DNA from: Eonycteris spelaea
Taxonomy: Eukaryota; Chordata; Mammalia; Chiroptera; Pteropodidae
Length of the DNA: 64,000 nt
Reading direction: 5' to 3'
NCBI GenBank assembly: GCA_003508835.1
Contig: PUFA01000021.1
Span: forward strand, 6,736,501 to 6,800,500
This document shows, one piece after another, positions 4,951 to 54,536 of the stretch. The position numbers were made by a program, and so were the translations under genes. The notes under the pieces were generated by a model, which made no database searches, was not told where the DNA came from, and saw nothing but the letters and a program-made list of their open reading frames with translations. How positions within the stretch are numbered: the stretch's first letter is position 1; every line of letters begins with the position of its first letter.

Positions 4951-5160
4951 GTAGTCCCCCTTCGCTACAAATTTGCTTACCCGTGGTCAACCACAGTCCA
5001 AAAATTCTAGGATTTAATGGAAAATTCCAGCATAAATAATTCATAAGTTTTAAATTGCATGCTGTTCTGAGTGATGAAATCTCGAGCCATTTCCCTCTGC
5101 CCTCCTCAGGACACAAATCATCCCTTTGTCCAGCATTTCCATGCGATATGTCATGCTGCC
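4951..5160 (-). mobile_element. Tigger-type (TcMar) nonautonomous DNA transposon, partial
   Basis: It begins GTAGTCCCCCTTCGC, resembling the terminal repeat of a pogo/Tigger MITE. It carries 'TAAATAATTCATAAGTTTTA', which the complete copy at 42453-42937 also has on its minus strand in near-identical form. The two therefore belong to the same family in opposite orientations. Only one terminal region and the adjacent half are present. It sits inside an MLT1 LTR. Confidence 0.75.
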
Positions 5161-16419: not shown

Positions 16420-16426
16420 AGGAGAC
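16420..16426. repeat. Left target-site duplication of the 5S SINE
   Basis: AGGAGAC, repeated exactly at 16637-16643. It flanks the retroposed element at its tail end. Confidence 0.85.
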
Positions 16427-16636
16427 TTTTATTTTATTTTTTATTTTATTTTATTTTATTTTATTTTTTAGGCGAGGCAACCCTTGGTTGACCTCACAGA
16501 TTGCAGGACCTTGTCAGCTTACAATCTCTTATTTTTTTTATTTTTTACACCTAAAGTACCTGGTCTTTCTAGGTGGTCTCCCATCCAAGTACTAACCAGA
16601 CCCCACCCTGCTTAGCTTCCGAGATCAGACGTAGAC
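16427..16636 (-). mobile_element. 5S rRNA-derived SINE (MEG-R-like, fruit-bat type)
   Basis: Read on the minus strand, the element starts GTCTAC, the first six bases of 5S rRNA. It then jumps to GTCTGATCTCGGAAGC and follows 5S rRNA closely to about its last bases (plus-strand 16549-16636). The internal RNA polymerase III promoter region is preserved: box A near AAGCTAAGCAGGG, box C near TAGTACTTGGATGGGAGACC. A unique 3' body follows, containing 'AGCTGACAAGGTCCTGCAAT' and 'CCAAGGGTTGCCTCGCC', then a (TAAAA)n tail. Exact 7-bp AGGAGAC duplications flank it, as for L1-type retroposition. 5S-derived SINEs MEG-RS and MEG-RL are described from megabats. Assignment to either is my inference. Confidence 0.9.
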
Positions 16637-16643
16637 AGGAGAC
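16637..16643. repeat. Right target-site duplication of the 5S SINE
   Basis: AGGAGAC, identical to 16420-16426. It directly abuts the 5S 5' end of the element. Confidence 0.85.
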
Positions 16644-25533: not shown

Positions 25534-25600
25534 AAAAACAAAACAAAACAAAACAAAACAAAACAAAACAAAACAAAACAAAACAAAACAAAACAAAAAC
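25534..25600. repeat. (CAAAA)n pentanucleotide microsatellite
   Basis: About 13 near-perfect AAAAC units. On the minus strand it reads (GTTTT)n and produces a repeated Phe-Val-Leu-Phe-Cys frame that is purely compositional. No SINE or L1 body obviously precedes it, so it may have grown from an A-rich tail. Confidence 0.95.
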
Positions 25601-29520: not shown

Positions 29521-29722
29521 CACGATGCCTACCATTTTTCAGGCATTTTTCAAATCAGGTTAACTGTACTAAGTAGTTTAAGTAACATAACACTCTATTA
29601 AATTTGTACTGGTATTTTTAATAGTTTACAGATGAGGAAACAAATGTTAGTGACTTGCTCAAGGTCACACAACTAGCATCTGGCAGCAGCAGATGCAAAG
29701 ATCTCTGTCCTCTAACTGTTAA
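29521..29722 (+). mobile_element. MIR SINE
   Basis: It contains the MIR core 'TTTACAGATGAGGAAACAAA' followed by 'GTGACTTGCTCAAGGTCACA' and 'CAACTAGCATCTGGCAGCAG'. The expected 5' tRNA-derived portion is recognisable but worn ('GTACTAAGTAGTTTAAGTAA'). Confidence 0.9.
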
Positions 29723-33014: not shown

Positions 33015-33240
33015 TTTACATATAGTGAGATGCCACTAGTGGGAATGATAGAGTGTGAGATCTGCTCCTCCATAAATGCCATGAAAATACAGAAAAAAAA
33101 TGCTTCCATATCTCGGCTACTGTGAATAAAGCTGCAACGAACATAGGGGTGCATATAGCTGTTCGAATTAGTGTTTTGGAATTCTTCAGATAAATACCCA
33201 GAATTGGAATTGCTGAGTCATAAGATAGTTCTAGTTTTAA
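33015..33240 (-). mobile_element. L1 ORF2 fragment (minus strand), left part
   Basis: The plus strand shows antisense distal ORF2: 'CCATATCTCGGCTACTGTGA', 'AAGCTGCAACGAACATAGGG', 'GATAAATACCCAGAATTGGA' and 'TTGCTGAGTCATAAGATAGT'. The fragment is interrupted at about 33240 by another L1 end and resumes at about 33372. Confidence 0.85.
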
Positions 33241-33371
33241 TTTTTTTTTATTAGTTTCAAGTATACAGTACATTGGTTAGCATTTATATAGTTTATGCAA
33301 CAATCCCCCTGATTGCTCTTTCCCTCTCTCCTTAGCTATTACATTAATGTTCACTGCATTCCCTATTCATG
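33241..33371 (-). mobile_element. L1 3' end inserted in an older L1 (minus strand)
   Basis: A T-rich start (its A tail on the minus strand) precedes 'TTAGTTTCAAGTATACAGTA', 'GGTTAGCATTTATATAGTTT' and 'CATTCCCTAT'. This is the same 3' UTR end as at 17765-17868 but slightly longer. It splits the ORF2 fragment around it, so it is the younger insertion. Confidence 0.75.
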
Positions 33372-37899: not shown

Positions 37900-38665
37900 G
37901 TCGAGAATACAGAATGCTGCTTTGGAATGCAATCTGACAGTTCAAAAAAAACATACACTTCTCATAGGATCCAGCAATCTACTCCTTGGTGTTTACACAG
38001 AGGAATTGAAAACATGTTTACACGAAACCTGCACACAGATATTTATAGCAGCTTTATTCATAATTGACAAAACTTGGAAGCAACCAAGATGCCCTTCATT
38101 GGATGAATGAAAAAAATTTTGCAGTGCATGCAGACAACGGAATATTATTCAGCACTAAAAAGAAATAAGCAATGAAGCCATGAAAAAACATAGAGAAACT
38201 TTAAATTTGCATTGCTAAGTGAAAGAAACCAATCTGGAAAGGTTCAATACTGTATTGTTTCAACTATATGACATTCGGGAAAAGGCAAAACTATGGAGAT
38301 TGTAGAAGTCTCAGTAGTTGTTAAGGGTTAGGGAGAAGGAGAGATGAGTAGGCAGAGTAAAGGGGATTTTATAAGGCAGTGAAACTACTCTGTACGATGC
38401 TATAAGAGTGGATTATGTCATACATTTGTTCTGCCCTTTTACAACTGGGAGAGTGAACTCTAAACTATGGACTTTGGATAATAATGATGAGTCAATATAG
38501 GTTCATTGACTGTAGCAAATGTACCTCTCTGATGAGGGATTTTAATAGTGGAGAAGGCCATTTATATTTGGGGTCAGGGAGTGAGTATCTGGGAACTCTG
38601 TACCTTCTCTTCAAGTTTGCTATGAATCTAAACTGCTCTAAAAAATAAAGCTATTTTAAAAAAGC
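37900..38665 (+). mobile_element. L1M fragment, ORF2 end through poly(A) site
   Basis: Distal ORF2 is followed by the complete 3' UTR. Blocks in order are 'TTATAGCAGCTTTATTCATA', 'AACGGAATATTATTCAGCAC', 'AACTATATGACATTC', 'GTCAATATAGGTTCATTGAC', and the end 'CTAAACTGCTCTAAAAAATA' with an AATAAAG signal. No frame is open over the ORF2 part for any useful length. It is the best-preserved L1M tail in the window. Confidence 0.85.
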
Positions 38666-42452: not shown

Positions 42453-42937
42453 CAGTAATCCATCCTTACCTGGGGGCAATATATTCCAAGACCCGAGTGG
42501 ATGCTGAGACTGAACCCTATGTGTACTATTTTTTTCCTACACGTACACACCTATGATAAAGATTAATTTATACATTGAGCACATTAAGAGATTAACAACA
42601 ATGACTAATAATAAAGAGAACAATTATAACAATGTACTGTAATAAAATGTACATTGAATTTGGTCTTTCTCTCTGATTACTGATCTGATAACCCAGAGCA
42701 CTACTGAGGGCTAACGTGCAGGCAGTGTTTATAGTGTGGATACGTCGGACAACTGGATGATTCTTTCATGTCCTGAGAAGGGCAAAGAGGAACAGCACAA
42801 ACGTCATCACACTGCTCAGAATGGGGTGCAATTTAAAACTTATAAATTGTTTATTTCTGGAATTTTCCATTTACTATTTTTAGACCATAGCTGACAGTGA
42901 GTAACTGAAACCACAGAAATAAAAAGAAGGGCTACTG
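42453..42937 (+). mobile_element. Complete Tigger-type (TcMar) MITE, 485 bp, with TA duplication
   Basis: It begins CAGTAATCC and ends GGGCTACTG, imperfect terminal inverted repeats. TA flanks both sides (42451-42452 and 42938-42939), the tc1/mariner target duplication. Internal landmarks are 'TCCAAGACCCGAGTGGATGC', 'ACACCTATGATAAAGATTAA', 'ACAATTATAACAATGTACTG' and, near the end, 'TGGAATTTTCCATTTACTAT'. It has no transposase and is nonautonomous. It is inserted into an L1. Confidence 0.9.
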
Positions 42938-54325: not shown

Positions 54326-54536
54326 AGAAAGGAAGGAAGGAAGGAAGGAAGAAAGAAGGAAGGAAGGAAGGAAGGAAGGAAGGAAGGAAGGAAGGAGGAA
54401 GGAAGGAAGGAAGGAGGAAGGAAGGAAGAAGGAAGGAAGGAAGGAAGGAAGGAAGGAAGGAAGGAAAGAAAGAAAGAAAGAAAGAAAGAAAGAAGAAAGA
54501 AAGAGAAAGAAAGAAAGAGAAAGAAAGAAAGAAAGA
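54326..54536. repeat. (GGAA)n then (GAAA)n microsatellite, 211 bp
   Basis: An uninterrupted purine strand. The left two thirds is mainly GGAA units with a few GAA/GGA slips, and it passes into GAAA units. It is the longest simple repeat in the window. Arrays of GGAA are recognised binding substrates for ETS-family factors, and homopurine mirror tracts can form triplexes. Neither is demonstrated here. Confidence 0.97.

What the first reader, a model, noticed from the sequence alone, without database searches (positions are those of the whole stretch)
16420..16643. Well-bounded 5S rRNA-derived SINE
Most mammalian SINEs descend from tRNA or 7SL RNA. This one has a 5S rRNA head with box A and box C retained, a separate 3' body, a (TAAAA)n tail and exact 7-bp AGGAGAC target duplications. 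It is much less decayed than the neighbouring L1/L2 copies. 5S-derived SINEs in mammals are rare (MEG-RS/MEG-RL in fruit bats, one in springhare), so it is also a strong clue to the source organism.
Basis: partly seen in the sequence, partly recalled or inferred. Interest (0 to 1): 0.75.

Follow-up and report, generated by a model that had tools for sequence, protein, structure and literature searches.

The report
5S-derived SINE, probable fruit-bat MEG family
This is one copy of a small mobile element made from a ribosomal RNA gene, of a kind already described in fruit bats; it is real and well bounded, has lost a short piece near its start, and is otherwise ordinary.

Summary
Window 16427-16636, minus strand, is a retroposed SINE: 5S rRNA-derived head, A-rich linker, ~60-nt body, (AAAAT)n tail, exact 7-bp duplications. 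The window's own genome (1.96 Gb) has thousands of relatives: 5,478 body matches at up to 3 mismatches in 46 bases, 0 for the reversed pattern; a Poisson fit suggests ~8,900 long-form copies averaging ~7% divergence. The same genome carries body-less short copies and tRNA+5S hybrids, the set recalled for the megabat MEG families (RS, RL, TR). SINE poverty and an alpha-globin closest to PDB 3fh9 (flying fox, recalled) also point to a megabat. The window copy is most likely a MEG-RL copy; the published MEG consensus was not held, so that name is inferred. Boxes A, IE and C remain but start-to-promoter spacing is lost, so it is probably a dead copy. Ordinary member of a known family.

The parts
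16420..16426 (.). target-site duplication, copy on the tail side (AGGAGAC)
   Evidence: read; control (score reached by 5 of 197 mismatched-locus pairs)
16427..16469 (-). A-rich 3' tail, (AAAAT)n
   Evidence: period 5, 7.8 copies
16470..16529 (-). SINE body, ~60 nt, two predicted hairpins; lacks one T of the family consensus
   Evidence: 5,478 relatives of its 46-base consensus core at up to 3 mismatches, reversed-pattern control 0; fold z -3.20; alignment
16530..16547 (-). A-rich linker between head and body, probably the old tail of a short form (inference)
16548..16636 (-). 5S rRNA-derived head with a 30-bp internal deletion
   Evidence: Rfam RF00001, 40.5 bits and 40.3 bits; 79/88 to human 5S
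16603..16617 (-). box A (5S positions 50-64, limits recalled), 14/15 as in human 5S
   Evidence: positions from the alignment
16595..16600 (-). intermediate element IE (5S positions 67-72, limits recalled), 5/6
   Evidence: positions from the alignment
16570..16587 (-). box C (5S positions 80-97, limits recalled), 16/18; both changes are shared by the family
   Evidence: alignment; table
16629..16632 (-). junction of the 30-bp deletion (break ambiguous by the shared CG)
   Evidence: exact junction pattern found once among 57 matches at up to 3 mismatches
16637..16643 (.). target-site duplication, copy on the head side (AGGAGAC); may extend to 16648
   Evidence: extension is inference

Best explanation
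It is one copy of a multi-thousand-copy, L1-mobilised, 5S rRNA-derived SINE family of a fruit bat, in its long (head + linker + body) form, most likely MEG-RL. A source copy is transcribed by RNA polymerase III from the internal type 1 promoter (boxes A, IE, C) in the 5S head; the A-rich RNA end primes target-primed reverse transcription by L1 at a TT|AAAA-like nick, leaving a short target duplication. Shown here: multi-copy family, common head signature, shared body, duplications above control, short and tRNA-hybrid relatives in the same genome. Inferred: pol III transcription, L1 as the machine, the host and the name MEG-RL. This copy has a 30-bp deletion between its 5' end and box A not found elsewhere in the genome; since a 5S promoter sets the start at a fixed distance upstream of box A (recalled), its own transcript would start in the flank, so it is probably a dead copy.
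For: Body pattern 5,478 times at up to 3 mismatches, 0 for the reversed control. 39 of 39 best relatives have head and body. Head changes shared over 57 examined copies: A93 in 56, A106 in 56, G13 in 47 of 50 with a letter there, TAGRAAGA in 45 (counted from the table). Duplication score of 10 or more in 11 of 35 relatives against 2 of 197 pairs from different loci; 7 of the 11 have TT just before the duplication. Short and tRNA-hybrid forms. Deletion junction exact only in the window. Host: none of seven recalled lineage SINEs in 264 kb, alpha-globin best single-unit chain 3fh9_A at 293 bits vs 274 next. PMC7547651 (passages): 5S-derived MEG SINEs are the only known active SINEs of megabats.
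Against: No published MEG sequence could be aligned. Genome size (1.96 Gb) fits other bats too (2.00-2.08 Gb for Myotis and Rhinolophus in the table seen). The seven lineage SINE consensi are recalled and had no positive control of their own. The beta-type globin that I picked is not informative. The exact 7-bp duplication does not by itself sit at an L1-type site. Transcription and mobilisation were not tested.
Confidence: 0.88

Rival explanations
1. A one-off 5S retropseudogene or 5S/L1 chimera formed in a single insertion.
For: 5S/L1 chimeric insertions are known in mammals (PMC13174262, passages); no second copy lies in the window.
Against: Thousands of copies of the body; 39 of 39 best relatives share head and body; head changes shared by the family and not by human 5S.
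Confidence: 0.01
2. A 5S-derived SINE of another mammal, such as the springhare families, or an undescribed megabat or other bat 5S family, rather than MEG-RL.
For: No MEG or springhare consensus was available for alignment; bats other than megabats have similar genome sizes.
Against: tRNA/5S hybrids beside short and long 5S forms match the recalled MEG set; no B1, B2 or VES hits in 264 kb (recalled consensi); alpha-globin closest to 3fh9.
Confidence: 0.1
3. The deleted head is a subfamily feature, a separate amplifying lineage with a shortened 5S head.
For: Promoter boxes are kept and the 5' end and duplication are clean; L079 has an odd shortened head of its own.
Against: The exact junction occurs once (57 matches at up to 3 mismatches, 1 exact). 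Of the 56 others I read 16 in full context and none has this junction; the other 40 were seen only as the printed 31-mers. None of the 39 best relatives has it.
Confidence: 0.02

Closest known systems
MEG-RL, megabat 5S rRNA-derived SINE, long form (Gogolevsky et al. 2009; recalled, paper not held)
   Same: 5S-derived head with internal promoter, separate 3' part, A-rich tail, megabat-like host, thousands of copies
   Different: Sequence not compared; this copy lacks 30 bp of the head
MEG-RS, the short 5S-derived form (recalled)
   Same: Same head lineage; body-less copies with the same head changes are in this genome
   Different: No body; the window copy has one
MEG-TR, tRNA/5S hybrid SINE (recalled)
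   Same: Four tRNA-5S hybrid loci share the 5S head changes
   Different: The window copy has no tRNA part
Springhare 5S-derived SINE (cited in PMC3272025, passage)
   Same: Mammalian SINE with 5S head
   Different: Sequence not compared; host evidence points to a bat
5S/LINE-1 chimeric insertions (PMC13174262, passages)
   Same: 5S sequence inserted with L1 hallmarks
   Different: Single events joined to L1, 5S usually antisense and truncated; not an amplified family

Membership tests
SINE (general) | dispersed multi-copy element with common structure | tested here: met
   39 of 39 relatives with head and body
SINE (general) | head derived from a pol III-transcribed RNA with internal promoter | tested here: met
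   transcription itself not testable here
SINE (general) | A-rich tail and target duplications of LINE-type retrotransposition | tested here: met
   11 of 35 relatives vs 2 of 197 controls; most tails A-rich but L043 and L048 lack one
MEG-RL | sequence match of head and body to the published consensus | not testable with these tools
   paper not held; name search without result
MEG-RL | occurs in a megabat | tested here: inconclusive
   alpha-globin, SINE poverty and family set agree, but no species name was obtained and 3fh9's organism is recalled
MEG set | short 5S, long 5S and tRNA/5S hybrid SINEs in one genome (recalled) | tested here: met
   of 16 loci brought in by the head pattern: 6 long, 5 short, 4 hybrid, 1 degraded; the seven were picked for odd 5' letters, so proportions are not representative
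MEG set | about 22,000-23,000 copies per genome (PMC7547651, passages) | tested here: inconclusive
   ~8,900 long copies by Poisson fit; 2 copies of any form in 200 kb, i.e. ~20,000 with interval 2,400-71,000
MEG set | the fourth family, tRNA-derived MEG-T2 (recalled) | not tested
   no search made

The most novel reading that the evidence does not exclude
Probability: 0.06. Interest if true: 0.55.

Novelty: already known. Interest (0 to 1): 0.15.

Why it matters
Little by itself: a clear example of a rare SINE class in mammals and a useful clue to the source organism. The family could serve as a clock for asking whether SINE insertion outlived L1 in megabats, since thousands of long-form copies can be dated.

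Tried and rejected
Body as a described RNA: Rfam at permissive threshold gave, outside the 5S head, only a weak plant snoRNA match (21.9 bits, gathering score 50) and an Ocean-VII match overlapping the head, both taken as chance. Public collections: three viral-contig scans gave one hit, in a phage-like coding stretch, chance; one genome-contig scan gave none. These were weak tests, since the patterns carry the window's own 1-nt loss and that its own deletion junction. No second copy in the window. Subfamily reading of the deletion: not borne out. Age from the 39 best relatives (mean 4.0% non-CpG) is biased towards the query; the pattern counts give about 7%, i.e. 26-33 million years at recalled rates of 2.2-2.7e-9, so no sign of a recent burst. 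Counts at 0 and 1 mismatch and a search with the family consensus did not complete. The beta-type globin gene that I picked matches best a chain I take to be human epsilon (recalled); 3fh9_B came fifth; only alpha-globin is used. Paper search for 3fh9 gave no confirmation. Pfam on ten window ORFs: no hit.

Full report
What is there. On the minus strand of 16427-16636 the sequence begins at the first base of 5S rRNA, runs through a 5S-derived head (16548-16636), an A-rich linker, a ~60-nt body (16470-16529) and an (AAAAT)n tail, and is flanked by exact 7-bp AGGAGAC repeats. Rfam scores the head just above the 5S gathering threshold (40.5 vs 38 bits). Against human 5S (recalled) 79 of 88 aligned bases agree and one 30-bp stretch is missing; boxes A, IE and C have 14/15, 5/6 and 16/18 matches (alignment, box limits recalled). 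Exact 7-bp repeats at this spacing occur at 7 of 63,500 window positions, this one included. If the duplication is extended to AAAGTGTCTCCT with one GT unit lost in the tail-side copy, the site becomes TTTT|AAAG, L1-like; that extension is inference.

Is it a family? Yes. A search of the window's own genome (1,962,903,590 bases, 3,802 contigs) with the element gave 2,913 candidates, of which 40 were scored and all 40 matched, the window included. I fetched the 39 others. All 39 have a 5S-derived head and the body in the same order; most have an A-rich tail, L043 and L048 do not. The 46-base body pattern occurs 5,478 times at up to 3 mismatches and 3,492 times at up to 2, with 0 for the reversed pattern each time. 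A Poisson fit to these two counts gives 3.1 substitutions per 46 bases (6.8%) and about 8,900 gap-free copies; copies with indels in the pattern, such as the window's own, are not counted. In 20 arbitrary 10-kb pieces from three large contigs (C1, C6, C10) I found 2 copies, one long and one short, i.e. about 20,000 per genome with an interval of 2,400 to 71,000.

Forms. Sixteen further loci brought in by the head pattern were read in context: nine as L050-L058, and seven that I chose for odd 5' letters, so proportions mean little. Six are long, five end in an A-rich or other tail soon after the head with no body, four have a tRNA-like unit directly upstream of the 5S head (L051, L056, L084, L085), and one (L050) is degraded. 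ARAGORN, run on 11 of the loci, calls a tRNA (tRNA-Ala) in L056 alone; my box B pattern flags L051 and L084; L085 is by eye. In L051 AAGTATTTATAGG lies on both sides of the tRNA + 5S unit, so the hybrid moved as one (read). Head changes relative to human 5S are shared over the 57 examined copies: A93 in 56, A106 in 56, G13 in 47 of 50, TAGRAAGA in 45 (counted from the table). They therefore descend from one amplified lineage and not from independent 5S pseudogenes. The A-rich linker of the long form looks like the old tail of a short form to which the body was added (inference).

Thirty-five of the 39 relatives have a near-complete 5' end and keep all or most of the 5S stretch that the window copy lacks. 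The deletion junction is exact only at the window among 57 matches at up to 3 mismatches; 16 of the 56 others were read in context and none has it, the other 40 were seen only as printed 31-mers. The break lies at a shared CG. Relative to the family consensus the window copy otherwise has 6 substitutions in 170 aligned bases, one 1-nt loss and one 1-nt gain; three of the six are at positions that vary among copies. Because 5S-type promoters place the start at a fixed distance upstream of box A (recalled), this copy's own RNA would start about 30 bp upstream, in the flank; I read it as a dead copy. Whether the deletion happened during reverse transcription or after insertion cannot be told here.

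Mobilisation. Comparing head-side with tail-side flanks, 11 of 35 relatives reach a duplication score of 10 or more, against 2 of 197 pairs drawn from different loci; 7 of those 11 have TT just before the duplication. This fits L1 target-primed reverse transcription. The window's own score (9.4) is reached by 5 of 197 controls.

Host. Of eight recalled SINE consensi only the ancient MIR hit; seven lineage SINEs (Alu, B1, B2, SINEC, VES, ERE, Bov-tA) gave no hit in 200 kb of sample plus the window, though these had no positive control of their own. [quoted passage not shown] at that density 0.73 copies are expected per 64 kb, and one is seen. Alpha-globin exons from the genome match PDB chain 3fh9_A at 293 bits against 274 for the next single-unit chain; six fused tandem chains score higher by counting twice. 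That 3fh9 is flying-fox haemoglobin is recalled; a paper search did not confirm it (listing only). The genome size lies between Rousettus aegyptiacus (1.893 Gb) and Pteropus vampyrus (1.996 Gb) in PMC10239488 (passages), but other bats in that table are close too (2.00-2.08 Gb for Myotis and Rhinolophus).

Age. Non-CpG divergence from the consensus is 5/151 (3.3%, Poisson interval 1.1-7.7%) for the window copy and 4.0% on average for the 39 best relatives, range 2.0-6.0%; that set is biased to the query. The pattern counts give about 7%, or 26-33 million years at recalled bat rates. L1 is reported extinct in Pteropodidae for at least 24 million years (PMC4072516, passages), so most copies fit L1's lifetime; a late insertion of this copy is not excluded. 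PMC7547651 calls the MEG SINEs active but at very low level (passages).

Body. It folds into two hairpins better than shuffles (z -3.20, 2 of 200 shuffles as good; stretch 16472-16502 z -4.37, 0 of 200), while the deleted head does not (z -0.32). Only the window's own sequence was folded. No described RNA family explains it. Its origin is unknown.

Verdict. A genuine, well-bounded copy of an already described kind of element, most likely MEG-RL, carrying a private internal deletion near its 5' end. Ordinary for a fruit-bat genome.

Noticed in passing
25535-25598: Perfect (AAAAC)n array, 12.8 copies at 100%; no recognisable SINE seen just upstream by eye.
   Followed up: partly
29527-29686: Old MIR copy, 66.9% to a recalled consensus.
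   Followed up: no
33101-33366 and 37964-38116: L1-like stretches by eye (ORF fragments), repeated in the 264-kb sample at up to 83.6% and 70.1%; Pfam gave no hit.
   Followed up: partly
5016-5131 and 42747-42871: Inverted pair of an unnamed interspersed repeat, 74.6% over 126 bases, found by self-comparison.
   Followed up: no
54326-54536: Long purine-rich AAGG/AGAA array, ~50 copies of a 4-base unit.
   Followed up: no
L056 1363-1600: tRNA-Ala followed by a 5S head whose first ~35 nt appear duplicated in tandem.
   Followed up: partly
L079 200-290: Long-form copy with an odd shortened head and a repeated box A stretch (AGAAGCTAAGCAG twice), different from the window's deletion.
   Followed up: no
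   Followed up: no
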